Shown piece by piece: positions 254 through 19,877 of a stretch of DNA of 20,447 nt (positions are counted from its first letter, which is position 1; every line of letters begins with the position of its first letter). The notes beneath the pieces were generated by a model. That model made no database searches. It saw only the letters and a list, made by a program, of their open reading frames with translations, and had not been told where the DNA came from. Source of the DNA: a virus; the IMG/VR virus record IMGVR_UViG_3300026075_000043, positions 1 to 20,447 of that record, one strand, 5' to 3'. A program made the translations under genes and the position numbers.

Positions 254-1041
254 GCGATCCCGCCGACCATCAACCGTTCCAGCAGTTCAACCGCACGGCG
301 GGGCACGGCGAAGCCCAACCCGGTCTGGGTCAGGTCGTCGGAGTTGCGCCGGCCGGCGAAGCCGTTCTGGGTTTCCCACAGGTGCGCGGCGACGATCAGC
401 CCGGCCAGCTTGCCCCGCTCCGGCACGACCGTGCGCCCGGCGGTGTAGACGAGGGTGTGTTCGTAACCGGCCCCGTACCGCAGGTAGATCACGCCGAGGT
501 CGGTGTCGACCCGGTACGCGTCAGCGGTCAGCGCGGTCCCCAGGTAGGGCGTGATCGAGGTGACCGCGACGAGTGGTGTCCTACGCGGGACGATCATCTC
601 GGAGGCGTAGTGGGTCTCCGTGTAGGAGGTGATCGAGATCGGTCCGCCGATCGCCGATTCCACCCACTCCGTCGCGGCGGCCAGATGCGTGCGCAGTTCG
701 GCGTCGTCCACCACGTCGGTGCGGTTGAGGTGGGCTTTGAACTCCTCGATCGAGGCGACGTACACGCGGCCGGGGTCGACGGTGAACTGACCCGGATCGG
801 TCGCGACGACTGTGCCCGAGGCGGTCCACACGTAGGACCACAGCCCGGCCATGTCCACCGTGACCGGTGCCGTGTACACGCCGCCCGAGCCGGTGTTCGT
901 GACCGTCGGCGCCGGTGAGACCAGCGTCGCCCGGTCGCCTTTGGTCACCGCGATCGTCACCGTCGGCGTATTGACAGGTGTTCCGGCGTCGTTGCGGACA
1001 ACCGTGGACAAGGTCACCTTGTCGCCGATGTCGTAGATCAT
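250..1041 (-). CDS. Head-tail connector with N-terminal Ig-like domain
   Basis: The protein has 263 aa. Residues about 1-92 form an Ig-like beta domain (DIGDKVTLSTVVRNDAGTPV through a GVYTAPVTVDMAGLWSYVW strand pair). Residues about 95-263 look like an HK97 gp6-type connector: SIEEFKAHLNRTDVVDDAEL then a helix, a central beta part ending VYTAGRTVVPERGKLAGLIV, and the helix AAHLWETQNG. Connectors of this class form a ring under the portal and provide the platform for the tail. The start ATG (1041-1039) overlaps the TGA of the upstream 872-aa gene (ATGA), and its own stop overlaps the next start, so it sits in a coupled chain. The Ig-like domain could face outward from the neck. The connector call is strong; the role of the Ig-like part is inference. 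Confidence 0.82.
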   Translation of the reverse strand: MIYDIGDKVTLSTVVRNDAGTPVNTPTVTIAVTKGDRATLVSPAPTVTNTGSGGVYTAPVTVDMAGLWSYVWTASGTVVATDPGQFTVDPGRVYVASIEEFKAHLNRTDVVDDAELRTHLAAATEWVESAIGGPISITSYTETHYASEMIVPRRTPLVAVTSITPYLGTALTADAYRVDTDLGVIYLRYGAGYEHTLVYTAGRTVVPERGKLAGLIVAAHLWETQNGFAGRRNSDDLTQTGLGFAVPRRAVELLERLMVGGIA

Positions 1042-3656
1042 GCGTCACCTCCGCTGCTGGTAGAGGTGAGCCGGCCATGAGGTGCCGAGTTCGAAGAGGC
1101 CGAACCAGTGCGCGAGGTGCCGGTGAAACGGGGGCCGGTCGAGCTTGAGGTGAACGCCGGCACAGTGGTGCTGGTCGCGAACGATCCGGGGGTGGCAACG
1201 AACGCGATGATGTTCACCGTGCCAACGCCCGAGAGCGCTGCGACGGTGGCCGGTGTCGGGGCGGTGACGAGGACAGCCGTACCGACCGAGGCGATTGCCG
1301 CGACGGTGTTGGGCGTGATCGCCGCCGAGATCCGGACGGTGACCGCGCCGACCGCCGCGACCGCGGAGACGGTGGCCGGGATCGGTGCGGCGCCGGCCTG
1401 GACGGTTGGCGCACCGACCGTGGCGAGTGCGGGAACAGTGGCCGGAGCGACCGCCGAACCGGCCTGAACGGTGACGGCGCCAACGGTCGCGACAGCGGAG
1501 ACGGTAGCTGGGGTGACGTTCGCGGCGCCGCCGAGCTGCGGCACACCGACGGAGGCAATAGCCGCGACCGTGGCGGGTGAGACGGTCGTGCCGAAGAACC
1601 GGGTGATCGTCGCGACCGTGGCGGTCGCGACGACGGTCGCCGGGGCCGGGGCCGCACCCGCCTGGACGCCCGGGGCGCCGACCGATGCGGTCGCGACCAC
1701 AGTCGCGGGAGCGGGTGCCGCGCCCGCGCGCACGGTCGGCGCGCCCACCGTTGCGACCGCTGGCACGGTGGCCGGGGAGATCGCCGCCGACCATCGCAGC
1801 GTCGGACTGCCAACCGTTGCCGTCGCGACCACAGTGGCCGGTGCGGGCGCGGCCCCGGCCTGGACCGTGATCGTGCCGACAGAGGCGACAGCCGCGACAG
1901 TGGCCGGGGCTGCCGGTTGGTCCGGCAAGGTCGGGGCACCGACCGACGCGACCGCGACGACGGTGGCGGCACCGACGAGGACGCCGAGTCGGACGGTGAC
2001 CGTACCCACTGAGGCGGTGGCTACGACAGTTGCGGCGGTGACCGCCGCGCCGGCCTGGACGGTGACGGTTCCCACCGGGGCGATCGCCGCCACGGTCGCC
2101 GGGGAGATCGTGGCGCTGAGCCGAACGGTCGGCGCATCCACCGAAGCGATCGCGGCGACCGTGGCCGGGGTGACGGCAGAGCCGGCCTGGACAGTTACGG
2201 ACCCAACCGCGGCGACTGCGGCAACGGTTGCCGCGGAGATCGTGGCGTCGGCGCCGCCGCCGGCAACGGTGGTGGTGCCGTACACCTCGACAGCGGCGAT
2301 CGTGTACGTCTGACCGCCGGGTGTGGCGATGCCGTACGTGTTGAAGGTGGGGTAGCCGGTGTCCGACCAGTACGCGACGTACGTGGCGTACTGCGCGGCG
2401 TCCCTGAAGTAGGTCTGCTCCCCCGCGCCACCGGCAACCGGGGTGATCGCGTTGACGGTCCGGTAGGTGCGGGCGGCGCCGTCCTGCGCCGACCAGTCCC
2501 CGTTGACGGCGACAACCGCCGAGTTCGCACCCAGGGTGGACATGCCCAGCCCGGGTGCGCCGGCCGCCTGAGCCTTCCCGGACGCGCCGACCCCGTCACT
2601 GCCCCGGTATTGGAGGGCGTTGAAACCCCAGAACTGGACTGTCCCGCCGACGCTGGCCACGGACAGGGTGAACGTCTCATTCGCGACCGCGACGGCAGTC
2701 CAGACGAACACCGCGGTGTTGGAGGCAACCGCGGAGGACTGCTGCAGCGTGTAGGAGTGGGAGCCCCCGGTCGGAGTCGCGAGGGTTTTCACAGCATCGG
2801 CGGTGACCCCGGAGATGACCAGGACGTCGCCGGTCTGCACCGTCACGGAGATCGTTTTCGGGGTGGTGGTGGTGTTCCACGCCGACTCGTACTCGGCGAT
2901 GAACACGGGCGGGGTTTTCGTCTGCGGCAGGCCGCCGGAGAACGGCCGCCACTGCCCGGTGGGTCCGAGCCGGCCCGGGGTCGGACCGGTGTGCGGGCCG
3001 GCGAAGTCCCCGTCACCTTGGAACGCGACCGAGATGAGCGCCTTGAAGTTGGCGGTGGTGCAGGTGGCGGTGGTGGCCGAGTAGGTGCCCCGGATCGCGT
3101 ACTCGCCGGACGCGACGCCGAGCCCGCCGCCCAACCCGTCGATGACCCAGTTGTCGACGCGTTCGGTGACAGCGGCGAGCGAAGCGTTGGCGAAACCGGT
3201 CACATGCGCCGTACTGGCCACATCGGTGCCGGTGGAGAACGCCGCCAGAATCAGGCAGTCACCGAACGCGGTCGTAGCACCCGGAATAGAGACCGACGTG
3301 TCGGAGACCAGTTCGGTGTTACTGCCGACGGCGATCCACGGCGTGCCGGTGGGAACGCAGCCACGCAACCCGACGATCCGGGCCACCAGGTGATCCCCGG
3401 GGTCCGGGACGGTCGGCCCGCCCTCAGACGGCCCGGCCCGCTTCCATCGCACCGTCAGGCGGGTCACGGTGCCGGAGGCGACGAACACCGAGGTCACATC
3501 TGTCCAGCCGGTCATCGCCGGAACAGCGGTGACATCCTCGGACTCGATGAACAGGACGAGGATGTCGCCGGCCACTGTGCCGGCGGGCAGTCCGAGGACG
3601 ACAGCACCGGTGCCGGAGCCGACCGCCCCAACGTTGTACACGGTCGGCATCGGCAT
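1038..3656 (-). CDS. Large repetitive surface protein (probable head fibre or decoration protein) with 22-residue repeats
   Basis: The protein has 872 aa. Residues 1-215 and about 250-460 look like two beta-sandwich modules (GLPAGTVAGDILVLFI in the first, VTVQTGDVLVISGVTADAV in the second) joined by a Gly/Pro linker. Residues about 475-823 are roughly 16 tandem units of 22 residues, consensus P-A-T-V-x-A-x-A-x-V-G-x-x-T-V-x-A-G-A-A, with one unit of 21 and one of 20. The last about 50 residues are rich in Ser, Thr and Gly. The start ATG is preceded by GGGAGG at 9 nt. There are no catalytic motifs. It lies between capsid and connector genes, so a head-attached fibre or decoration is likelier than a tail fibre, though tail use is not excluded. 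The low-complexity repeat and Ser/Thr tail make it a candidate acceptor for the glycosyltransferases upstream. Confidence 0.7.
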   Translation of the reverse strand: MPMPTVYNVGAVGSGTGAVVLGLPAGTVAGDILVLFIESEDVTAVPAMTGWTDVTSVFVASGTVTRLTVRWKRAGPSEGGPTVPDPGDHLVARIVGLRGCVPTGTPWIAVGSNTELVSDTSVSIPGATTAFGDCLILAAFSTGTDVASTAHVTGFANASLAAVTERVDNWVIDGLGGGLGVASGEYAIRGTYSATTATCTTANFKALISVAFQGDGDFAGPHTGPTPGRLGPTGQWRPFSGGLPQTKTPPVFIAEYESAWNTTTTPKTISVTVQTGDVLVISGVTADAVKTLATPTGGSHSYTLQQSSAVASNTAVFVWTAVAVANETFTLSVASVGGTVQFWGFNALQYRGSDGVGASGKAQAAGAPGLGMSTLGANSAVVAVNGDWSAQDGAARTYRTVNAITPVAGGAGEQTYFRDAAQYATYVAYWSDTGYPTFNTYGIATPGGQTYTIAAVEVYGTTTVAGGGADATISAATVAAVAAVGSVTVQAGSAVTPATVAAIASVDAPTVRLSATISPATVAAIAPVGTVTVQAGAAVTAATVVATASVGTVTVRLGVLVGAATVVAVASVGAPTLPDQPAAPATVAAVASVGTITVQAGAAPAPATVVATATVGSPTLRWSAAISPATVPAVATVGAPTVRAGAAPAPATVVATASVGAPGVQAGAAPAPATVVATATVATITRFFGTTVSPATVAAIASVGVPQLGGAANVTPATVSAVATVGAVTVQAGSAVAPATVPALATVGAPTVQAGAAPIPATVSAVAAVGAVTVRISAAITPNTVAAIASVGTAVLVTAPTPATVAALSGVGTVNIIAFVATPGSFATSTTVPAFTSSSTGPRFTGTSRTGSASSNSAPHGRLTSTSSGGDA
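1195..2234 (-). repeat. Tandem 66-bp coding repeats (about 16 units)
   Basis: This is the DNA encoding the 22-residue repeats of the 872-aa protein. Units begin with a codon set for P-A-T-V and recur every 66 bp, with two shorter units (63 and 60 bp). Copies are diverged at the DNA level, so the array is old or under selection for protein pattern rather than recently amplified. Because the period is a multiple of three, copy-number change by recombination would keep the frame. The opposite strand is also open through much of the array, a by-product of the GC-rich repeat. Confidence 0.85.
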
Positions 3657-8151: not shown

Positions 8152-9126
8152 TCAGCCAAGGAGCTTTTGGTAGGCGTCTTCCCACTGCTTCCATCCGTTC
8201 GTGATCGTCCACTTGCTTGCGAGGGATCGTGCGTTGGCGGCCATCTCGGTGCGCATCGCCTCGTCGTTGACGAGGGCGTGAACCCGTTTGAACCACTCGT
8301 GCTCGCGTTTGACGAGCCAGCCGGTGACACCGTCGACGACGAAGTCCCGGTAGGGCTCCAGGTCGGTTGCCACAACCGGAATACCGAGCGCCGCGTATTC
8401 GAGGGCTTTGATGTGCGACTTCGACCGGTTGAACACCGACGTCGTCAGCGGTGCAAGGCCGATGTCGAAGTCGATGTTCGAGTAGTACGTCGCGAGGTCC
8501 GGGTCCCATTTCGTGAACCGGCACGGGCGGCCGATGGTGTCCTCGTAGTCGGTGCCGACCAGATGCGTTTCGACGTCGTTGCGGTCGATCACCCGCCGCA
8601 ACTGGGCGGCGATCATCTGCAGGTCGGAGCCATGTGAGGCTCCCCCAGCCCAACCGATAACGAGCTTGTCGCGCTTCGGTCGCTCGATGTCGAGGATGAA
8701 GTCGGGCACGTAGTTGGGCAGGACCACGACATTCGGGTTGTGCCTGCGCATCACCTCGGCCAACGTCGGAGTGGTCACGGTGACCAAGTCAGCGACCTCG
8801 GCGGCGTGGGCGACGGCGTCCTGCACGTCGGCGCGGGAGAACGTGACATAGGCCATCGCGTTGACCGGGTCGACGGAGAACACGTCGTCGTCGATCTCGT
8901 AGACCAGCCGGGAGTGGGAGCGCATCCGCCGCCATTCCGGCAGGGCAGCGTGCTTGTCCATCCGCTGGCCGACGATGAGTTCGTAGTCACGCATCTCCGC
9001 GTGTTCGACGTTGGAGCCGAGGACCATCCGCACGTCATGCCCGCCGTGTTCGGCCATCGCACCGAGGGGGACTTTTACCCGATACTCGCCGCAACCTGAC
9101 TGGTCGTGGAAGGCGTAGACCCGCAC
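8152..9126 (-). CDS. GT-B fold glycosyltransferase (GT4-like)
   Basis: The protein has 324 aa and starts at a GTG that shares bases with the upstream stop (TAGTG). The N-terminal Rossmann domain has a glycine loop (GCGEYRV, residues 11-17). A linker and second domain start near IGWAGGASHGSDLQMI (157-172). The donor-binding region follows: FDIGLAPLTTSVFNRSKSHI (220-239) then KALEYAALGIPVVATDLEPY (240-259), ending with VDGVTGWLV. This E-x(7)-like arrangement and the GIPVVATD strand are typical of GT-B retaining enzymes that move sugars from nucleotide-sugar donors. It is shorter at the N-terminus than many host enzymes. Located in a methyltransferase, oxidoreductase and GT2 cassette, it probably adds a sugar to a virion protein or host surface polymer. 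Donor and acceptor are unknown. Confidence 0.85.
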   Translation of the reverse strand: MRVYAFHDQSGCGEYRVKVPLGAMAEHGGHDVRMVLGSNVEHAEMRDYELIVGQRMDKHAALPEWRRMRSHSRLVYEIDDDVFSVDPVNAMAYVTFSRADVQDAVAHAAEVADLVTVTTPTLAEVMRRHNPNVVVLPNYVPDFILDIERPKRDKLVIGWAGGASHGSDLQMIAAQLRRVIDRNDVETHLVGTDYEDTIGRPCRFTKWDPDLATYYSNIDFDIGLAPLTTSVFNRSKSHIKALEYAALGIPVVATDLEPYRDFVVDGVTGWLVKREHEWFKRVHALVNDEAMRTEMAANARSLASKWTITNGWKQWEDAYQKLLG

Positions 9127-9305
9127 TAGTCGGCTTTCGGGGGGCTGTAGCTCTCCTCGCCACCTGACGCGCTCATCGCACCTTCACGCCCGTTCGAGGT
9201 CATCATCGAATCCGGGTGAACCGCCTCGTGCTTGACGGTCTTCTCGGCGCCGTGCATCGTGGCGCCCATCCCGGTGACGCTGTCGCCGGTGTCTGCTCTC
9301 CGCAT
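9126..9305 (-). CDS. Small hypothetical protein between the two glycosyltransferases, 59 aa
   Basis: The ATG at 9305-9303 is preceded by a near-consensus ribosome site (GAGGAGGT with five bases to the ATG), which itself overlaps the GT2 stop region. The frame ends TAG at 9128-9126, sharing bases with the next GTG. The peptide begins MRRADTGDSVTGMGATMHGA, then EKTVKHEAVHPDSMMTSNGR and ends in a Ser/Gly/Glu-rich tail (SASGGEESYSPPKAD). It is hydrophilic, with no membrane segment or cysteine, and probably poorly structured. A role as partner of the flanking glycosyltransferases, or simply as a coupling gene, cannot be decided. It occupies space that would otherwise be an unexplained gap. Confidence 0.62.
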   Translation of the reverse strand: MRRADTGDSVTGMGATMHGAEKTVKHEAVHPDSMMTSNGREGAMSASGGEESYSPPKAD

Positions 9306-9316
9306 CGGTGACCTCC

Positions 9317-9946
9317 TCAGGTGGCGAAAAAGTAGTCGACAGTGACGTCGTTGATCCGGGTCCAGCGGGCGCCGTTGTCGAGCCAGCGCGACACGACACC
9401 CCAGTCAGGTGCGTGCTTGTCGCCGTCGATCTCGCCGGGCAGCGGCCACAGCCCGAACTTCTGCGGCACGCCACGACGGTGAATCAGCAGCGACGTGTCG
9501 ATGCCGCCGTAGATCGGTGTCTCGGCGCCGATCACCGAGTTGGTGGGGTGGCACAGCATCCGGGCGTAGGCGAAGTCGGCCAGCGGATCCCGCTTGAGCG
9601 CGCGCACCAACAGGCGCAGGTGTTCGGGTCGGTAGGCGTTGTCGTCGTCGAGGTAGGCGACGTACTCCCCCGACGCGTAGGCGAGGCCGTGGTTACGCGC
9701 ACGTGAGCCGTAATCGACCGGCCCGTCGAGGTGTTCGGACAGTTGCAGGAACCGCAACGGCCTGGTCTGCAACGGCCGGCGCCACAGGTCCTGGGAGACG
9801 AGCATGGCGAGTTCCCGGTCCGGGCCGTCGGAGACGATGATGTGCTCGACGCTCGGGTAGGTCTGCGCGTAGACGGACTGGACGCAGCGGCCCATCAGCA
9901 GATCGTGGCGCTGCCAAGTTGGAGTCACCACAGTGACGAGGCTCAT
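9317..9946 (-). CDS. Family 2-type (GT-A) glycosyltransferase
   Basis: The protein has 209 aa and starts at an ATG overlapping the oxidoreductase TGA (ATGA). The GT-A signature is clear: VTVVTPTWQRHDLL (4-17), SVYAQTYPSVEHIIVSDG (24-41, with the uridine-binding Asp at 40), RNHGLAYASGEYVAYLDDDN (84-103, the DxD metal site at 100-102), and a late DWGVVSRWLDNG (181-192) in the place of the catalytic base region. It is slightly short for the family but has all core blocks. The reaction would be inverting transfer of a sugar from a nucleotide-sugar to an acceptor. It forms a coupled unit with the FAD enzyme and methyltransferase. Virion glycosylation is the most economical role; host surface modification is the alternative. 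Confidence 0.88.
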   Translation of the reverse strand: MSLVTVVTPTWQRHDLLMGRCVQSVYAQTYPSVEHIIVSDGPDRELAMLVSQDLWRRPLQTRPLRFLQLSEHLDGPVDYGSRARNHGLAYASGEYVAYLDDDNAYRPEHLRLLVRALKRDPLADFAYARMLCHPTNSVIGAETPIYGGIDTSLLIHRRGVPQKFGLWPLPGEIDGDKHAPDWGVVSRWLDNGARWTRINDVTVDYFFAT

Positions 9947-10938
9947 GCGTCCACCATCGCGGCGGTGATCTCGCGCGCGGCCGCGAGTGCGGTGCCGATC
10001 TTCCCGGACAGGATCCTCACCGTGTCCCCGTCACGTTCGACCAACGTGGGCCGTTCGTCGGTGGCCGCCACATCGGGCAGGACCGCGCGGATCGTGAACA
10101 TCGACGCGACGTACGTGGCGGGGAAGTCGCCGAGGAACCGCCGGGCGGTGTCGGCCATCCGGTTGAACCGGGTCCGTGGGGTACGGACCGGTCCGGCATC
10201 CATGAGCTCGCGCAGGTGCTCGGGGACTTGCGGGCGCATCCCGACGGTGCGGTGGTGCACCGAATGGACCACATCGTAGAGGAGGTGATGCCGGGTGCCC
10301 GGAAGCGGGTCGATGCAGCAGTACGGCCCGTCGAGGACCACGTAGGACTGCCCGGCGTACTCGGGACCGAGCTGGCAGACCGCTACTTCGGTGACCTCGA
10401 ACTGCAACGGCCGGGCGGTGTGCGCGCCGTAGGTGGCCAGGACAGTCAGGTCGTAGCCGGGCATGTCCGGTCCGCCTTCACAGCCGAGCAGCAGTCGCAC
10501 CGGTGCCGCGGCGAGTTGGCGGTGCAGTGCGGCACGCAGCTTGGCGACGTTGATCAGCGACTCGGGTACCTCAACCGCGACGTCCACCGACGGGTGCCCG
10601 TACTGCCGGTAGGGCAACTGCAGGCTGTCCAGGAACGTCAGGTAGTCCGGGCCGGATACGAGGCTGTCCGGCGCGATCAGGTAGTGGTGTTTCGCGCTGC
10701 GGTGCACCGCGCTCGGGTACGCACGGGTGAACTCGTCGGCCGCTGCCTTCGATGCCAGTGCTGTCGATTCCGACCGCGGGTAGTGGTAGCCCCGGTGCAA
10801 CCTTCCGCAGGAGTTCCCCGACCCGCCGTGCAGCAGGTCGGGATGCCGCTCGTACAGGTCCACCTGTGCACCCGCGCGTGCGAGTTCGATCGCGGCCATG
10901 CACCCGAACAGACCGGCGCCGATGACTGCCGCCTTCAC
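9943..10938 (-). CDS. FAD-dependent oxidoreductase (DAO/Rossmann type)
   Basis: The protein has 331 aa; GTG start overlapping the methyltransferase TGA (GTGA). The dinucleotide fold opens at residue 1 with AAVIGAGLFGCMAAIELARA (GxGxxG at 7-12) and an acidic residue ending strand 2 (LYERH, E30). A second motif, GSGNSCGRLHRGYHYPRS (39-56), matches what I recall from FAD oxidoreductases in bacterial polysaccharide clusters, and VLATYGAH (about 166-173) is the usual ATG-like FAD contact. A final ILSGKIGTALAAAREI closes the FAD domain. It probably oxidises a sugar or amine group on a precursor that the flanking enzymes methylate and transfer. The substrate is unknown. A single-copy flavin enzyme inside a structural operon is unusual. 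Confidence 0.82.
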   Translation of the reverse strand: MKAAVIGAGLFGCMAAIELARAGAQVDLYERHPDLLHGGSGNSCGRLHRGYHYPRSESTALASKAAADEFTRAYPSAVHRSAKHHYLIAPDSLVSGPDYLTFLDSLQLPYRQYGHPSVDVAVEVPESLINVAKLRAALHRQLAAAPVRLLLGCEGGPDMPGYDLTVLATYGAHTARPLQFEVTEVAVCQLGPEYAGQSYVVLDGPYCCIDPLPGTRHHLLYDVVHSVHHRTVGMRPQVPEHLRELMDAGPVRTPRTRFNRMADTARRFLGDFPATYVASMFTIRAVLPDVAATDERPTLVERDGDTVRILSGKIGTALAAAREITAAMVDA

Positions 10939-11492
10939 GCTGGCGACCCGATGCCGACGAACTCGTAATGGACCGAAAGCGTGTCGGTCAACTTACCCGG
11001 ACCGCAGTACACCTTGTCGATCGCCGCCCGCACACCCGGGCAGGTCACCTCGCCGTAGTCGTGGCAGGCGATGATCCCAACGCCGTCCGCGTTGTACCGC
11101 AGCAGCCGCCGCGCCCATCCGATGTCATGTTCGACGACGTCGGCGGTGTGATCGCCGTCGATCCAGACAAGGTCGAACGTCTGCCCGTCCTCATGGATCT
11201 GCGGTAGTACGTCCTGCGACCTGCCGACCCTGATGTCAGCTTTCCCGGTGATGCCGTTGTCCCGCAGGTTGCGGGCGAGGTCGCCGAGCGAGCCGTGGGT
11301 CATGTGCGGGTCGACGGCGACGATCGAGCGGGCGACGAGTCCTATCGCGACGGTCGAGTACCCGTACGCGGACCCGATCTCCAACACGTCGGCGCCCACG
11401 GCGAGGCGTTGCAGTTCGAGGGTTTCGGCTTCGGTGAGCGAGGTGTTGATGACCGAGTTGCCGATCTTCACGTCACGCCAGAGAAGCTGCAT
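10935..11492 (-). CDS. Class I SAM-dependent methyltransferase (Methyltransf_24-like)
   Basis: The protein has 185 aa. Motif I is VLEIGSAYGYST (36-47), the strand-2 acidic region is IVAVDPH (57-63), and a WIDGDHTADVVEHDI block (110-124) plus IIACHDYGEV (140-149) match the Methyltransf_24 pattern, where IDGDH and HD can bind a metal with catechol- or sugar-like substrates. The ATG at 11492 is preceded by GAGGTG at four bases and overlaps the previous gene by 20 nt. It lacks a DNA target-recognition domain and the DPPY/PC motifs, so it is unlikely to be a DNA methylase. It probably methylates a sugar or small molecule in the cassette with the oxidoreductase and glycosyltransferases. Confidence 0.85.
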   Translation of the reverse strand: MQLLWRDVKIGNSVINTSLTEAETLELQRLAVGADVLEIGSAYGYSTVAIGLVARSIVAVDPHMTHGSLGDLARNLRDNGITGKADIRVGRSQDVLPQIHEDGQTFDLVWIDGDHTADVVEHDIGWARRLLRYNADGVGIIACHDYGEVTCPGVRAAIDKVYCGPGKLTDTLSVHYEFVGIGSPA

Positions 11493-12430: not shown

Positions 12431-13051
12431 TTAGTTGATCAGGGCACGGTGCCGTTCGATGTACTCGGCTGCCGCTCGAAGCAGCGCCGGGTCGTCCTTG
12501 AATCGGCCGAGCCCGTTGTTGCACGAGTTGCACAGCAACGCACGGGCCTTGCCGGTCACATGATCGTGATCGGTGTGTAGCCGACTCGCGGCGCGGATGC
12601 CGTCGGGGTTCGGCGGGCTACCACAGATGGCGCACAGGCCGTTCTGAGCGGCCAGCATGGCGTCGTGTTGCTCGGGCGTCAGGCCGTACCGCTCCAGTTG
12701 CTTCATCCGGTTGTACACACGCACGCGCTCGCTGCCGCGTCGCAGTTCGTTCTTCCGGCGCTGCCGCTCGGGCCGGCGATCTGCGGCTTGGATGACCGAC
12801 TGCCGGTCGGGCAGGCGCGCGTAGCAGGCGCGCGAGCAGGCGCGCTTGTCACGGCGGGCCGCCTGGAAGGTGACGCCGCAGACCGGACAGACGAGCGTGA
12901 CTGCCGGCGTGCGCGGGCCGACCTTGCCGGGCTTCTCGATCCGGTTCGAGCAGGTCTTGGAGCAGTACAACTGGCTGGTCTTGCGTTGCTGGAATGACTC
13001 GCCGCAGAGGCGGCAGAGCGCGGTCCAGCGACCGTCGGCGCTTCGGGGCAC
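12431..13051 (-). CDS. HNH endonuclease, recombination endonuclease VII family
   Basis: The protein has 206 aa from the GTG at 13051-13049, preceded by AAGGA at 8 nt; a TTG at 13099 would lie inside a hairpin and is unlikely. Two zinc-ribbon-like clusters come first: CRLC/CSKTC (about 13-34) and CPVC/CSRAC (about 55-76). A basic linker follows, then the nuclease: RYGLTPEQHDAMLAAQNGLC (about 122-141), LHTDHDHVTGKARALLCNSC (about 158-177) and NNGLGRFKDD. The His-Asp-His core, CxxC pairs and Asn pair match endonuclease VII-type HNH enzymes, which cut branched or specific DNA and often occur as free-standing homing endonucleases in phages. It interrupts the capsid-to-cassette gene run and is bracketed by hairpins. 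A homing role is inferred. Confidence 0.88.
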   Translation of the reverse strand: MPRSADGRWTALCRLCGESFQQRKTSQLYCSKTCSNRIEKPGKVGPRTPAVTLVCPVCGVTFQAARRDKRACSRACYARLPDRQSVIQAADRRPERQRRKNELRRGSERVRVYNRMKQLERYGLTPEQHDAMLAAQNGLCAICGSPPNPDGIRAASRLHTDHDHVTGKARALLCNSCNNGLGRFKDDPALLRAAAEYIERHRALIN

Positions 13052-13064
13052 TGGGGGGTTCCTT

Positions 13065-13104
13065 CCCTCTTGGGTAGGACGTGAGTACGCCCTACCCAAG
13101 AGGG
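13065..13104 (-). terminator. Perfect 14-bp hairpin between capsid and HNH genes
   Basis: CCCTCTTGGGTAGG (13065-13078) pairs perfectly with CCTACCCAAGAGGG (13091-13104) around 12 bases. It begins 22 bases after the capsid stop and ends just before the AAGGA ribosome site of the HNH gene. No U-tract follows on the minus strand. It may end or stabilise the abundant capsid message, or hold down translation of the endonuclease. Confidence 0.5.
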
Positions 13105-13126: not shown

Positions 13127-14377
13127 CTACGTGGCCGGCGCCTTGAACGATTTCAGTGCGCCTGTGAGATCAACTAGCGCACCGTCACCACGCAGTACCG
13201 CTCTGTAGGCAACCATGTCACTGTCGAAGAGGAAGTCGTCGGAACGCTCAAAACGGATTCCACCGACCATACGCACAAAGAACTGGCTAAAGTCCCCGAA
13301 TGCGACACTTTGGGCACCAGTGGCCACAGCGGGCATAAAGGGATCAGTCACGATTGGCTTGCCGAGCAGGAGATCGGGTGCACCGACCTGCATCGACGGC
13401 TGCCAGATCGGCTGCCCTGTCGTGTCCCGCAGCTTGCGCAACGACCCCACGGTCGCGTCGCGCATGATCCAGTAACACGAACGGCTGGACCGGTACGGCG
13501 CGATCACCGAATACATCAGGTCCACAAGGTCCACGTACTGCGGAGCACCCGACACGCCCGTGGTCGTACCGGTGATCCCGATCGTCACCGAGGTCATGAA
13601 CCCGGTCGGCTGCGCGGTGCCGGTACCGGTGACGAGGTCGGCGCCGAACTTGTTGCCCAACGCCCGGCCTGCCTGCATCGACAGGTAGCCCTCAAGGTCC
13701 ACGCCGGTGTCATCGACGAGCTCGCGGCTGACGCGGCCGGTCCAGCCGAACTTGTACGCGCCCAAGGTGACCAGGCCGAACGCCGGGTCCGACGACGGGA
13801 GGACCGCCGCTTCCGCTGCTGACGCGGCGGTGGAGTGGGCGGTGGTCTTCGGGATCTGCAGGTTCTCGCCCGAGTTCGTGTTGAGCACGGTCGGGTTGGC
13901 CTGCATCACCCCGGACACCTCGATGAGGTGTGCGATGAGCTGGTCGTAGAAGCTCGTCGGGACGGTGTTGCCGCCTGCACCGGTCGTCAGGCGTGACAGA
14001 GCACGCTGGTTGATCTCCCACAGGTTCGTGTAGCCCGCTTCGTTGCGAAACTCCATCGACCGCGGGGAGCCGGGTGCGCCCTGCAGCATCTGCCGCAGCT
14101 CGGAGGCGTTCTGCTGCTGCTGTCGCCCGGTGCGGGTCTGCGGCTTCTGCTCCAGGCGGTTGAATGCGTCGTCGGCTTCCTTCGCCCGCGCCTCAGTGTC
14201 CAACGCGCTCTTGATCCGGGTGTCCAACGCGTCCAGTTCGGCGTTGTGCGCATCCCATTGGCCCTGCTCTTCCGCGCTCAGCGCGCGGTTCTCCTCGACG
14301 GCCCGCTCGGCGATCCCCTTGGCCTGTTCCCAGACATTGAGTCGCCGGTCGCGCAGCCGCTTGACGATCTCGCTCAT
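13127..14377 (-). CDS. Major capsid protein, HK97 family, with N-terminal scaffold domain
   Basis: The protein has 416 aa. Residues 1-85 are a charged coiled-coil (MSEIVKRLRDRRLNVWEQAK to LEQKPQTRTG), typical of the delta domain that scaffolds HK97-type heads and is removed by the protease. The fold proper begins near residue 120 (NLWEINQRALSRLTTGAGGN), followed by PTSFYDQLIAHLIEVSGVMQ, a KFGWTGRVSRELVDDTGVDL spine-helix region, FGADLVTGTGTAQPTGFMTS, WIMRDATVGSLRKLRD and a C-terminal FERSDDFLFDSDMVAYRAVL. ATG start with GAGAGGA five bases upstream. It is preceded by a 218-bp leader and followed by a hairpin, suggesting its message is handled separately. Cleavage probably lies between residues 85 and 120. 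Confidence 0.95.
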   Translation of the reverse strand: MSEIVKRLRDRRLNVWEQAKGIAERAVEENRALSAEEQGQWDAHNAELDALDTRIKSALDTEARAKEADDAFNRLEQKPQTRTGRQQQQNASELRQMLQGAPGSPRSMEFRNEAGYTNLWEINQRALSRLTTGAGGNTVPTSFYDQLIAHLIEVSGVMQANPTVLNTNSGENLQIPKTTAHSTAASAAEAAVLPSSDPAFGLVTLGAYKFGWTGRVSRELVDDTGVDLEGYLSMQAGRALGNKFGADLVTGTGTAQPTGFMTSVTIGITGTTTGVSGAPQYVDLVDLMYSVIAPYRSSRSCYWIMRDATVGSLRKLRDTTGQPIWQPSMQVGAPDLLLGKPIVTDPFMPAVATGAQSVAFGDFSQFFVRMVGGIRFERSDDFLFDSDMVAYRAVLRGDGALVDLTGALKSFKAPAT

Positions 14378-15581: not shown

Positions 15582-15785
15582 TCAGGTGATGCCGAGGATC
15601 CGGCGTGCCTCGGCGTGGAACTCGTCATCGTCGGCGTCGACGTCAACGTGGTGCTGGTTGTAGTCCGAGCCCGGCTTACGGCCCCGACTGTCGAACTCCG
15701 CACTAGCGCGCGCGAGGTTCGCTTCGACCCATTCCTGATGCCAGTCGGCGAGCGCGATGAGACGCCGACGACGGTCCGGGTTCAT
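15582..15785 (-). CDS. Small protein coupled to the portal gene, 67 aa
   Basis: The start is the ATG at 15785-15783, which overlaps the portal TGA (ATGA); a longer reading to 15845 lies inside the portal gene and is not needed. The protein begins MNPDRRRRLIALADWHQEWV, then EANLARASAEFDSRGRKPGS and a His/Asp-rich HHVDVDADDDEFHAEARRIL. It looks like two helices with a basic start and acidic end. No family recognised. It probably works with the portal or its C-terminal extension. Confidence 0.7.
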   Translation of the reverse strand: MNPDRRRRLIALADWHQEWVEANLARASAEFDSRGRKPGSDYNQHHVDVDADDDEFHAEARRILGIT

Positions 15786-18310
15786 AGCGGTTTCACCGCC
15801 TCCCAGGACGCGCCCCGGCCGAGCATCGCCGCCTTGCCGGGCCACGTGTCGGCCTTGCCCGCACCCGGCGGCCGACCGGCCTGGGAGATTTCGTAGGCGG
15901 TCGGGTAGCCGGGCTCGCCGAACGGGATCCGGTCGGCCCGGTCGAGGATGTCGCGAACCGGCGGGGTGTCGGCGCCGGGAACTTCGCGCAGGCGACGCAG
16001 GATCCGGTCGGCGTCGTCATTGTGCTTGAAGTCGAAACCGGCCCGCGCCCACGCGTACCCACCTACATCGATGTTGGCTTCCAACTCGATGCGGTCCAGG
16101 CCCATCTCCCGGTACCGGTCGATCATGTGGGCGTTGAACGCCTCGGCGAAGCCCTGCCCTTGAATGGAGTCGTTGAGAATCAGGCTTGAGTGGTACGCGA
16201 TGAGCACGCCTTCCTCTGGAAGGATTTCGCGGACGAAGTCGCCGACGGGCGAGCCGTTGCGGTCGGTGACCTCGCCGGTGATCCTCACCCCTTCGGCGTA
16301 CTCTTCGACCCGACTCACGCTGGTTCTGAACCCGGCGAACTCGCCTTTGTAGACGGAGCCGATCTGGTGACGGAACGCGGGGCTTTCGGTTGCGTCGAAG
16401 AACGTCGCCGGGTCGAGCCGCTTGGCCTTCTTGACCGCCGCCTTGCGACGGGGCCGTCGCGCGGGCCTCGGCGTGGCCGGCGTGCCGTCAACCGCGTCGG
16501 CGATCTCCTTCGCGGCCTTCTTCAGCGCGCCTTTGACACCCGGCCGGCCGTGTTTGCTCTGGTCGTGCAGGCCGGGTAGGTGACGTTCGTCGAACGCCAA
16601 GCCGGCCGGGTCAAAAGGGTCCGCCCTGCGCAGTTGCAGATCGGCGAACACGTTCGCACCAAGATTGCGCGGACCGACCGGGTTCTTGCCCTTCTGATGC
16701 CCAGGCCAATAGCCCTTGACCGCGTGGAACCAGGCTGCAGCCGTCGCTTTCGCCTTACGTGCCGGCATGTACTTACGCAGGTGCCGGTACAGGGCTGTCC
16801 ACGGGTGTGGGCTCGCCACCCACTTCGCCAGGCCCGGCCCCTTGGTCCAGTACGCCTTGAGCCGGGCCCCGCCCTTGACGCCTTCCGGGGTGACCGCGCG
16901 CCCGTCTGCTTCGTCGTCTACGAAGTCGTCGTCGTCGTCTGGATCGGGTTCGTTGGGATCCCAGTCCGCCGCTTCATCGTCGTCGGCTCGATCGTCGTCG
17001 TCTTCGTCGTCTGGCTCGACGTAGCTGCCGTCTAGCGCGCGCGTCTCGCGGACGTCGAGTTCGTCGACCCGGCGGGCGAGAAGCTCGACGAACGCGGCGA
17101 GGTCGGCCGGGTCCGGGTCGGCGCGGGTCTGGACCGCCGGCGGGCCGGCCTGTTTGGTGAGGATCTCCAACGGGGTGTAGTCCTGGCCCTGCCCGTTCGG
17201 CAGCGGCGGGAGGTCTTCGATCGCCCGTGCTTCGTCGATGCTGTAGAGGCCGATCTGCCGGCCGGTCTGGTAGGAGGCCATCCGGGTCTGCAGGTCGGTG
17301 CGGAGCAGGCTGTCGACGTTGAACTTGACGTACTGCGGGCGGGGCATGAGCTGGAAGAACGCCGCTTCGAGCAGGGTCAGCCACGGCCGGAGGGTGAACT
17401 TCTCCAGCCCTTCGGCGTTGGACTGCACGGTGTTGTACGTGAGCGGGCCGCCGGCTTCGCCGCCGATCATCTCCGGTGGGATGCCGTAGATCGAGGCGAT
17501 CTGCGTGGCCGTCAGTCGCTGGGTTTCGATGAACTTCGCCTCGTGCGCGGCGACGGCGATGGGCTTGTACTCCCAGTCGTTGCCGTAGACGAGGGGCTTG
17601 CGGCGTTTGATCGCCGCGTTCAGGCGGGCCGAGATGATGTCGGCCTCTTCCTGGGTGACCCTTTTGCCGGTGTTACGGAACTCGCCCGGCGGGACGGCGC
17701 CGGCGTCGAACCAGTCGTTCGTGTAGTGCTGCGCGCTGATGCCGGTGGAGATCGTGGCCGCGCACGCGCCGATCGGACTGAGGCCGAGGATCCTGCCGGG
17801 CACCGTGAACCACGGGATGTGCAGAAGATCCTCACCGGGAATGACGCGGCCCTGCCAGTACCAGACCGGCTGCGTGTAGGAGCCGGGACCGGAGGGCATC
17901 CGGTCTTCGACCTTGACGTCGTCCGGGTGCAGCCACTCGATCATCGTCGGGTACTGGTCCCGGTCACGGGCGGTGATGTAGCCGAAGGCGTTGCCACGCA
18001 GCGTGAGCGAGGTCATGCACCGGTGCAACCAGTCGTAGAGGGTGCCCTGCACGGACGGGCGGACGAACAGCGGGAACGGCGGGATCTTCTGCCGGCTGTC
18101 GCCGGTCTTGCGGTACGTCTGCAACGGCAGGCTCGCCACCTGCGAAGACAGCAGCCGCACCGAGGCGAACACGGGAACCAGGCCGAGCGCCTGATCGACC
18201 GAGACCGACGCGGCGCGCAGCGGGCCGCCGACATCCCACGGCACGGAGTCGATCGCCCGTTCCTCGACGCCCTTGTTGAGCCAGCGCAGCGCCACGTCAC
18301 GCAGCGTCAT
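15782..18310 (-). CDS. HK97-type portal protein with long C-terminal extension including a GNAT-like domain
   Basis: The protein has 842 aa, about twice the usual portal length. Residues 1-400 are a standard HK97/lambda-type portal (SVSVDQALGLVPVFASVRLL, GNAFGYITARDRD, DLLHIPWFTVPGRILGLSPI, ATQIASIYGIPPEMIGG, FNVDSLLRTDLQTR). After an acidic linker (432-470) comes AYWTKGPGLAKWVASPHPWT (486-505) with LYRHLRKYM, then HDQSKHGRPG (582-591), a basic stretch (613-631), and residues 650-765, which look like a GNAT-type fold: SIQGQGFAEAF (Q-x-x-G-x-A at 717-722) and LEANIDVGGYAWARAGFDF (743-761). GNAT enzymes transfer acyl groups from acetyl-CoA. The portal ring is the DNA channel, and the extra domains could be delivered with DNA or act in the prohead. 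ATG start with GGGGAGG upstream. Confidence 0.88.
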   Translation of the reverse strand: MTLRDVALRWLNKGVEERAIDSVPWDVGGPLRAASVSVDQALGLVPVFASVRLLSSQVASLPLQTYRKTGDSRQKIPPFPLFVRPSVQGTLYDWLHRCMTSLTLRGNAFGYITARDRDQYPTMIEWLHPDDVKVEDRMPSGPGSYTQPVWYWQGRVIPGEDLLHIPWFTVPGRILGLSPIGACAATISTGISAQHYTNDWFDAGAVPPGEFRNTGKRVTQEEADIISARLNAAIKRRKPLVYGNDWEYKPIAVAAHEAKFIETQRLTATQIASIYGIPPEMIGGEAGGPLTYNTVQSNAEGLEKFTLRPWLTLLEAAFFQLMPRPQYVKFNVDSLLRTDLQTRMASYQTGRQIGLYSIDEARAIEDLPPLPNGQGQDYTPLEILTKQAGPPAVQTRADPDPADLAAFVELLARRVDELDVRETRALDGSYVEPDDEDDDDRADDDEAADWDPNEPDPDDDDDFVDDEADGRAVTPEGVKGGARLKAYWTKGPGLAKWVASPHPWTALYRHLRKYMPARKAKATAAAWFHAVKGYWPGHQKGKNPVGPRNLGANVFADLQLRRADPFDPAGLAFDERHLPGLHDQSKHGRPGVKGALKKAAKEIADAVDGTPATPRPARRPRRKAAVKKAKRLDPATFFDATESPAFRHQIGSVYKGEFAGFRTSVSRVEEYAEGVRITGEVTDRNGSPVGDFVREILPEEGVLIAYHSSLILNDSIQGQGFAEAFNAHMIDRYREMGLDRIELEANIDVGGYAWARAGFDFKHNDDADRILRRLREVPGADTPPVRDILDRADRIPFGEPGYPTAYEISQAGRPPGAGKADTWPGKAAMLGRGASWEAVKPL

Positions 18311-18323
18311 ATGCCCTCCCCAG

Positions 18324-19877
18324 TCATCGGATACTGGCGAGGACGTCGTAGTCGGCGGCGGTCAGCCAGGACGCCCGGTCCACGGCCATCACCGCGGCGA
18401 CCGCGAGGTCGATGCGTTGCCGCGAGTTGCGGTGCTCCTTGTAGATCCGGGTCCCCCGCGAGTCCGCTTTGAGTACCGCGTTGTCCAGGTGCCGCGACAG
18501 GCGTTGGTCGCCGGAGTGGGCGATGGTCCGGTTCATCACCATCTCGTAGAACCGGGTCGTTGCCGGGGTCATCCGCGACGAGGTCTGCGGGAACTCGACC
18601 ACCGGATAGCCCTCTTCTTCGAGGATCTGGTAGGTGCGTGCCCAGCGGAACGGGTCACAGGCCAGCTCGACGACCTGCCAGCGCCGGCAGGCCTCGCGGA
18701 TCGTGTCCTCGACCTCGGCGATCGGGACCTTCCAGTCGCCGGGTGCGTGCAGCGGACGTTCCCACAGGGCGACGACGTCGACGTAGGCGGGTTCGCGCAG
18801 GTCAACCACGACCAGGGCGGTGCAGTCGCCGTTGAACGAGCCGTCGAACCCCAGCACCACCTCGGCGCCGTCCGGGATGTCGCGTTTCGCCTCGCAGGCG
18901 TCCCAGGTGCCGGTCGGCAGCCAACGGGAAACCGACGACACCCACTGGTTGCAACGCTTGGTCCGGAACTCGTTCTCCGGGGTACGCAGCACCGCCGACG
19001 CGAGGTCCTCGGCCGAGACGAGATCAGACAGGCCGGGGTTCGCTTCGCGCCAGGTGACCGGGTCCCGGTGGTCGGCGTCGGGGTCTTCCGGCTCCCACCA
19101 GGCCATGAAAAACGTCGGGTCCTCAACCTCACCCTGCGTGATCCGCTGCCCGTACTGATAGAGGGTGTAACAGAGCGTGTCTTCGCCGTCGATGTCGAAC
19201 TTGACCCCGGCGGTGGTGATGCCGATCATCAGCGGCTCGACGCGGGCACCCTGCGCCAGCGCCATGACGTCCCACAGCTCCCGGTTCGGCTGGGCGTGGA
19301 CCTCGTCGAAGATCACCTCGTGCGGATTCAGGCCCTCTTTCGTGAACGCCTCAGCGGACAGGACCCGGTAGATCGAGCCGGTCTGCTCGCATTCGATGAC
19401 GTCCCGGAAGACCTTGAGCATTTCGGACAACTCGGGGTCCATCGCGACCATCCGCCGTGCCGTATTGAAGACGATCTTCGCCTGTTCCTTGTCGGCCGCA
19501 CAGGAGTAGACCTCGCCGCCCTGCGGCCCGAGCACCAGCCCTGCCAAGCCGAGCGTCGCACCCACGCCCGACTTGCCGTTCTTGCGGGCCATCCCGACCA
19601 GCGCCTGCCGGTGCCGGTACCGGCCGTCCGGCCGTCGGGCCAGGAGGTGACCGAGGAGCAGCCGCTGCCACGGCCGGAACCGGATCAACTGACCGGCAGG
19701 GGAGGCGAGCGAGTCCTTGTCGACCCGGCAGACGGCCTCGCCGAAGTCGCCGAGTAGCTTCCCGTCGCCCCGCTCGACATCCTCGACCGGGACCGGGGTC
19801 AGCCAGCGCGGCGGCCAGCCGACGATCTCAGGAGGAGCGTTTACGGGACTCGATGAGCGTCTGGAGCGCGGAGGCAC
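18324..19877 (-). CDS. terL: Terminase large subunit
   Basis: The protein has 517 aa. ATPase: GMARKNGKSG (Walker A, about 95-104), NPHEVIFDEVHAQ (Walker B, 184-196) and IGITTAG (coupling motif, 218-224). Nuclease: VVLGFDGSFNGDC (340-352), ELACDPFRW (404-412) and a final RIDLAVAAVMAVDRA (488-502), giving the acidic residues of an RNase H-like fold. It packages DNA into the prohead through the portal and cuts it. The GTG start (19877) is supported by GGAGGTG six bases upstream, even though it overlaps the small-subunit gene by 50 nt. It is followed 13 bp later by the portal start. The sequence type resembles HK97-like terminases of actinobacterial phages. Confidence 0.95.
   Translation of the reverse strand: MPPRSRRSSSPVNAPPEIVGWPPRWLTPVPVEDVERGDGKLLGDFGEAVCRVDKDSLASPAGQLIRFRPWQRLLLGHLLARRPDGRYRHRQALVGMARKNGKSGVGATLGLAGLVLGPQGGEVYSCAADKEQAKIVFNTARRMVAMDPELSEMLKVFRDVIECEQTGSIYRVLSAEAFTKEGLNPHEVIFDEVHAQPNRELWDVMALAQGARVEPLMIGITTAGVKFDIDGEDTLCYTLYQYGQRITQGEVEDPTFFMAWWEPEDPDADHRDPVTWREANPGLSDLVSAEDLASAVLRTPENEFRTKRCNQWVSSVSRWLPTGTWDACEAKRDIPDGAEVVLGFDGSFNGDCTALVVVDLREPAYVDVVALWERPLHAPGDWKVPIAEVEDTIREACRRWQVVELACDPFRWARTYQILEEEGYPVVEFPQTSSRMTPATTRFYEMVMNRTIAHSGDQRLSRHLDNAVLKADSRGTRIYKEHRNSRQRIDLAVAAVMAVDRASWLTAADYDVLASIR

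What the first reader, a model, noticed from the sequence alone, without database searches (positions are those of the whole stretch)
15782..17000. Portal protein fused to a GNAT-like domain
Seen: an 842-aa portal with a D/E linker, two capsid-associated blocks (YWTKG..HPWTALYRH and HDQSKHGR), a basic stretch and a C-terminal region with Q-x-x-G-x-A and GGYAWARAGFDF. Known: Q/R-x-x-G-x-G/A is the acetyl-CoA loop of GNAT enzymes; phages do fuse effector domains to head proteins. Inference: each head would carry about a dozen copies next to the DNA, either working during maturation or being injected to modify a host protein.
Basis: partly seen in the sequence, partly recalled or inferred. Interest (0 to 1): 0.68.

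Follow-up and report, generated by a model that had tools for sequence, protein, structure and literature searches.

The report
Phage portal carrying an acetyltransferase effector
A phage's DNA-entry (portal) protein ends in an acetyltransferase domain of the kind used as a weapon, and that domain travels between unrelated phage head proteins and a bacterial secreted toxin-like protein together with a previously undescribed small partner gene, probably its inhibitor.

Summary
The window (a 20.4-kb virus fragment) encodes an 842-aa portal protein (core at residues 47-366). Its last ~212 residues form a GNAT fold: AlphaFold2 pLDDT 95.5, and the Foldseek hits listed are almost all acetyltransferases. 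Relatives sit mostly at the C-terminus of unrelated carriers: three portal types, MuF, Phage_min_cap2, VG15, ADP-ribosyltransferase polyproteins, stand-alone genes and a WXG100-type (type VII secretion) toxin-like protein of Actinoallomurus.

Homologues lie directly behind 40 of 48 distinct close GNAT relatives. Every partner found by a separate scan of the viral collection (27/27) lies directly behind a GNAT. The two proteins diverge in step (Mantel r 0.84). The partner has no Pfam, PHROG or PDB match.

Best reading: a mobile effector-plus-partner cassette on a phage portal, carried in the head to modify the next host; the partner most likely restrains the enzyme in the producing cell. Delivery, substrate and partner role are inferred. 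Portal and MuF effector fusions and GNATs in polyvalent proteins are known, so this is a new variant of a known kind.

The parts
15782..18310 (-). portal-GNAT fusion gene, 842 aa, ATG start, TGA stop
17213..18172 (-). portal core (residues 47-366)
   Evidence: Pfam PF04860 E 5.3e-63; PHROG 12 portal E 5e-74
16898..17014 (-). acidic D/E linker (residues 433-471)
   Evidence: sequence
16640..16894 (-). YWTKG...HPWTALYRH block (residues 473-557), a mobile module also found at the C-end of related portals L114/L115 and behind the partner in L013
   Evidence: PHROG 6439/29860/18402
16544..16567 (-). HDQSKHGR motif (residues 582-589), followed by a basic stretch to residue 631
15785..16420 (-). GNAT domain (residues 631-842)
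   Evidence: AlphaFold2 pLDDT 95.5, pTM 0.89; Foldseek PDB 104 matches at E<=1e-3, the listed top 50 almost all named acetyltransferases
16145..16162 (-). acetyl-CoA pyrophosphate loop QGQGFA (Q-x-x-G-x-A)
   Evidence: conservation in 61 relatives
16028..16063 (-). GGYAWARAGFDF, beta5-alpha4 region of the GNAT fold
15582..15785 (-). 67-aa partner gene, start codon overlaps the portal-GNAT stop (ATGA)
   Evidence: sequence; homologues directly behind GNAT genes; AlphaFold2 two helices
14781..15509 (-). prohead protease (context; could process the portal)
   Evidence: Pfam Peptidase_S78 E 1.5e-28
13127..14377 (-). major capsid protein (context)
   Evidence: Pfam Phage_capsid E 4e-61
18324..19877 (-). 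large terminase (context)
   Evidence: Pfam TerL_ATPase and TerL_nuclease

Best explanation
The gene makes a portal whose C-terminus carries, behind an acidic linker and a head-protein block, a complete GNAT acetyltransferase domain that serves as an effector. Portal C-termini face the capsid interior, so up to twelve copies (or cleaved copies) would sit beside the packaged DNA and could enter the next host to acylate a host protein or other amine substrate. The 67-aa gene translated in step with it makes a dedicated partner that most likely binds and restrains the enzyme in the producing cell. Shown here: the fusion, the predicted fold, the conserved cofactor loop, the coupled partner and its near-exclusive co-travel with the domain across unrelated carriers. 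Inferred: catalytic activity, packaging, injection, the target, and inhibition as the partner's role.
For: GNAT fold at pLDDT 95.5; PDB matches are GNATs such as NatD, OrfE, AAC(3) and Naa50. Pfam Acetyltransf_1 appears weakly in the window domain (E 0.12) and better in relatives (to 9.2e-7). dN/dS about 0.1-0.3 for the domain in most Salinispora-type prophage pairs. Carriers: portal types PF04860 and phrog_10963, portal+MuF, MuF, min_cap2, VG15, ADP-ribosyltransferase proteins. A WXG100-type 2372-aa bacterial protein ends in the GNAT and is followed by the partner. Partner directly behind 40/48 distinct close relatives; all 27 partner loci of a separate viral scan adjoin a GNAT; Mantel r 0.84, p 0.0002. 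Portals 67-68% identical to this one carry other extensions, and less close ones none (L114, L115, L117, L118); no partner was found in the 10 portal-relative loci.
Against: No proteomics or enzyme assay. Typical GNATs have Tyr where this clade has Trp754, so the catalytic residue is unsettled. Whole-chain TM-scores to known GNATs are modest (0.3-0.5), as the clade has a ~60-residue insert before the last strand. The partner's invariant residues (H16, W19, D41, Y42, H45), its conservation equal to the GNAT (39% mean identity each), and its fusion to other cargo-like proteins (L022, L028, L040, L064, L134) are unusual for a classical immunity protein. The partner is missing in most distant relatives.
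Confidence: 0.6

Rival explanations
1. The GNAT acts inside the infected cell or the prohead during assembly, modifying capsid or scaffold proteins, and the partner is its activating subunit or chaperone.
For: Sits in the head gene cluster next to the protease and capsid genes; partner motif very conserved and in places fused to other cargo-like proteins.
Against: The same domain and partner occur as the tip of a WXG100-type bacterial protein and as a stand-alone gene (L090); portals 67-68% identical do without it.
Confidence: 0.2
2. The extension is a non-enzymatic or decayed module, cleaved off by the prohead protease and lost.
For: A separate prohead protease lies two genes downstream; portals with short tails show the extension is dispensable.
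Against: Cofactor loop conserved, purifying selection in close relatives, co-diverging partner.
Confidence: 0.1
3. A bacterial-competition toxin: the prophage-encoded GNAT intoxicates non-immune bacteria when delivered by particles, with the partner as immunity protein of lysogens (MuF-toxin model). This is a variant of the best explanation that differs in who benefits.
For: Small gene directly downstream, as for most MuF toxins (PMC5576092); same pair on a WXG100-type protein; carriers found in Salinispora, Micromonospora and Nocardiopsis genome contigs.
Against: No orphan partner (immunity) copies in 395 genomes sampled; whether this phage is temperate is unknown.
Confidence: 0.3

Closest known systems
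Polyvalent proteins of phages and conjugative elements (Iyer et al. 2017, PMC5512222)
   Same: Phage head-associated proteins fused to effector domains, including PBECR, 2H and InPase domains on portals or MuF, and two RimI-like GNAT families
   Different: A GNAT on a portal is not described in the passages read; the dedicated small partner gene is not described there; Alice gp113, named for the second family, gives no hhalign match
MuF polymorphic toxins (Jamet et al. 2017, PMC5576092)
   Same: C-terminal toxin-like domains on a head protein, swapped between carriers, with a small ORF directly downstream read as immunity gene
   Different: Here the carrier is the portal itself; no acetyltransferase is mentioned in that paper; the same pair also occurs on VG15, WXG100 and stand-alone carriers
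GNAT toxins of type II toxin-antitoxin systems (TacT/AtaT, from general knowledge)
   Same: GNAT enzyme with a small partner gene in one operon
   Different: The partner is encoded downstream, is modelled as a two-helix protein without a ribbon-helix-helix strand, and the GNAT is a domain of large virion or secreted proteins
T4 Alt (ADP-ribosyltransferase packaged and injected; as cited in PMC5512222)
   Same: Protein-modifying enzyme proposed to be carried in the head and injected
   Different: Different enzyme fold; here physically part of the portal; packaging not shown

Membership tests
GNAT acetyltransferase superfamily | GNAT fold | tested here: met
   AlphaFold2 pLDDT 95.5; Foldseek best matches are GNATs, E 2e-5
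GNAT acetyltransferase superfamily | Q/R-x-x-G-x-G/A acetyl-CoA loop | tested here: met
   QGQGFA; Q/R in 59 of 61 relatives, second G in 60 of 61
GNAT acetyltransferase superfamily | Pfam GNAT model above its cut-off (a convenience, not a defining feature of the fold) | tested here: not met
   Acetyltransf_1 13.0 bits against 20.7 for the window domain; relatives reach E 9e-7: a divergent clade
GNAT acetyltransferase superfamily | acyl-CoA dependent transferase activity | not testable with these tools
   needs purified protein
Phage portal (PF04860) | complete portal domain in the head/packaging cluster | tested here: met
   E 5.3e-63, profile 3-321 of 321, between terminase and protease genes
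Polyvalent proteins / injected head effectors | effector-like domain fused to a virion protein, swapped among carriers | tested here: met
Polyvalent proteins / injected head effectors | present in virion and delivered into the host | not testable with these tools
   needs virion proteomics and infection assays
MuF polymorphic toxins | MuF domain as carrier | tested here: not met
   the window carrier is a portal; several relatives do have MuF
Polymorphic toxins | cognate small gene directly downstream | tested here: met
Polymorphic toxins | toxicity relieved by the downstream gene | not testable with these tools
   needs expression assay
Polyvalent GNAT family 2 (Alice gp113) | homology to Alice gp113 | tested here: not met
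   hhalign probability 1.1%
Polyvalent GNAT family 1 (BAR32501.1, gammaproteobacterial) | homology to its members, ART neighbour in the same protein | tested here: inconclusive
   some relatives do combine ART and GNAT (L029, L041), but BAR32501.1 was not available; of 369 genomes of the class of Pararobbsia only Pararobbsia itself matched

The most novel reading that the evidence does not exclude
An unnamed effector-partner cassette (GNAT plus a two-helix protein with a SDYNxHxVD loop) is passed as a unit between phage portals, other head proteins and type VII-type secreted bacterial toxins, so that the portal acts as a delivery vehicle for a polymorphic toxin whose inhibitor is made in step but need not be packaged.
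Probability: 0.45. Interest if true: 0.75.

Novelty: new variant of a known kind. Interest (0 to 1): 0.56.

Why it matters
If right, it gives a clean two-gene system in which to ask whether siphovirus-type portals deliver enzymes, since the enzyme is covalently part of the portal and so has a defined place and copy number. It also links head-borne phage effectors to bacterial secreted toxins through one shared enzyme-partner pair. The partner is a family without any annotation and gives a handle for finding further members; the partner was not found in cultured phages and close relatives of the GNAT are almost absent from them.

Tried and rejected
A direct sequence search of the single domain against PDB gave nothing; a profile gave only weak acetyltransferase hits. 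Single-sequence scans found 1 viral and 0 genome relatives; the alignment was needed. GNAT plus partner in one polypeptide was looked for in L050; the likeness was too weak to use. Alice gp113 as a family member was rejected. PADLOC gave no defence-system match. Foldseek of the partner gave no useful match. The partner in cultured phage genomes: none in 50,697 records. Many low-scoring hits (E 1e-3 to 1e-5) in the actinobacterial genome sample look like ordinary GNATs and were not counted. A literature search for a portal-acetyltransferase fusion found no paper.

Full report
What is there. The window is a 20,447-base virus record with a head gene cluster on the minus strand: large terminase, portal, a small gene, prohead protease and major capsid protein. 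The portal gene (15782-18310) is a single 842-codon frame. Pfam Phage_portal covers residues 47-366 in full (E 5.3e-63). Behind it come an acidic linker (433-471), a block also seen in other phage head proteins (473-557; PHROGs 6439, 29860, 18402), the HDQSKHGR motif (582-589), a basic stretch, and a C-terminal domain from about residue 631 to the end.

The C-terminal domain is a GNAT. An alignment of 61 relatives gave an AlphaFold2 model with mean pLDDT 95.5 and pTM 0.89. Foldseek against the PDB returned 104 matches at E <= 0.001; the 50 listed are almost all named acetyltransferases, led by NatD, OrfE, AAC(3) and Naa50. The best viral-library matches are unannotated Caudovirales proteins and Bacillus phage JL and CP-51 proteins. 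Whole-chain TM-scores are only 0.3-0.5, because the clade has a helical insert of about 60 residues before the last strand. The acetyl-CoA loop QGQGFA is conserved: Q or R in 59 of 61, second G in 60 of 61. Other conserved residues outside the search pattern are R694, H707, Y733, G737, G825, K826 and W836. The ANIDVGGYA stretch was used as the search pattern, so its invariance is not independent evidence. Trp754 stands where typical GNATs have the catalytic Tyr (general knowledge), so the mechanism may differ. The domain is under purifying selection in prophage pairs (dN/dS about 0.1-0.3 in most pairs). No Pfam model is specific to the clade; the PHROGs that match it (25452, 27103) are of unknown function.

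It is a mobile tip. Relatives (221 in viral contigs with the best 80 kept, 28 in bacterial genomes) sit mostly at the C-terminus of unrelated proteins. These include a second portal type (L009, L018; phrog_10963; L011 and L014 share that N-terminus), a portal-MuF protein (L104), MuF, Phage_min_cap2, VG15 and ADP-ribosyltransferase proteins. In Actinoallomurus it ends a 2372-aa protein with a WXG100 domain, the hallmark of type VII secretion substrates (general knowledge). Conversely, portals 67-68% identical to this one carry other extensions (L114, L115), and less close ones stop after 13-31 more residues (L117, L118). The extension is therefore not part of basic portal function.

The partner gene. 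The portal stop codon overlaps the start of a 67-codon gene (ATGA; 15785-15582). Homologues lie directly behind the GNAT gene in portal, MuF, VG15, stand-alone and WXG100 contexts. With a profile, 40 of 48 distinct close GNATs have it within a few tens of bases; some of these sequences built the profile, so the reverse test matters more. A scan of the whole viral collection for the partner's own motif found 27 loci, every one directly behind a GNAT; most were contigs already held, but two were new. In one case outside that scan (L039) the partner lies directly in front of the GNAT gene instead. In 395 genomes the partner was found once, beside a GNAT. None was found in the ten portal-relative loci. 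Pairwise divergence of the two proteins correlates with r = 0.84 (Mantel p 0.0002), and r = 0.65 among distant pairs. The partner has no Pfam or PHROG match. It is modelled as two confident helices joined by a low-confidence loop that holds the conserved SDYNxHxVD motif, and it has no PDB fold match. Two further bacterial carriers (L182, L183) have a different small gene at the same place.

How it most likely works. Inference: the portal C-terminus faces the capsid interior (general knowledge of portal structure), so the GNAT rides in the head in up to twelve copies and can reach the next host, as proposed for other polyvalent proteins (PMC5512222). There it would acetylate a host protein or another amine. 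The partner, translated in step, most likely keeps the enzyme in check while particles are made. Against a simple immunity role: the partner is as conserved as the enzyme (39% mean identity each), has invariant polar residues, and in several phages forms the N-terminus of another cargo-like protein, such as a 2H/ADP-ribosyltransferase protein (L022) or, judged by eye, NUDIX-like (L134) and HNH-like (L064) proteins. An activator or chaperone role therefore remains open.

Known or new. Effector domains on portals and MuF, and GNATs in polyvalent proteins, are described (PMC5512222). Small genes behind MuF toxins are described (PMC5576092). What I did not find described in the papers read is this GNAT clade on a portal, its dedicated partner family, and the sharing of the pair between phage head proteins and a WXG100-type protein. 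The second polyvalent GNAT family (Alice gp113) is not the same by profile comparison; whether the first family is the same could not be settled.

Noticed in passing
L056 (ORFs at 556, 1749, 2258, 7212), L073, L034, L042, L061; 18 of 92 GNAT carriers: A short motif, roughly [FW]xxxxHPR(D/N/G)xxxG(R/K/Q)(F/W), recurs ahead of effector-like domains and near the N-terminus of several ORFs of the same phage; 43 of 1396 other ORFs also match. It could be a packaging tag or protease site.
   Followed up: partly
window 8152-11492: Between the structural genes lie a glycosyltransferase (PHROG 7162), an FAD-dependent oxidoreductase and a SAM methyltransferase, suggesting a sugar- or small-molecule-modifying cassette in the phage.
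   Followed up: no
window 1038-3656: 872-aa protein with many degenerate repeats of the type ATVxAxAxVGxxTVxAGAA; no Pfam or PHROG match.
   Followed up: no
window 12431-13099: Endonuclease VII-type HNH gene just downstream of the major capsid gene, possibly a free-standing homing endonuclease.
   Followed up: no
L114 and L115: Two contigs with nearly the same portal core and the same C-terminal YWTKG block differ by a swapped insert of some 200-300 residues between them, a second variable slot in the portal.
   Followed up: no
L181 (actinobacterial genome): Three GNAT domains of this clade occur close together, two in one 1170-aa ORF and one in a following 430-aa ORF, upstream of an ORF that by eye resembles a prohead protease.
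   Followed up: no
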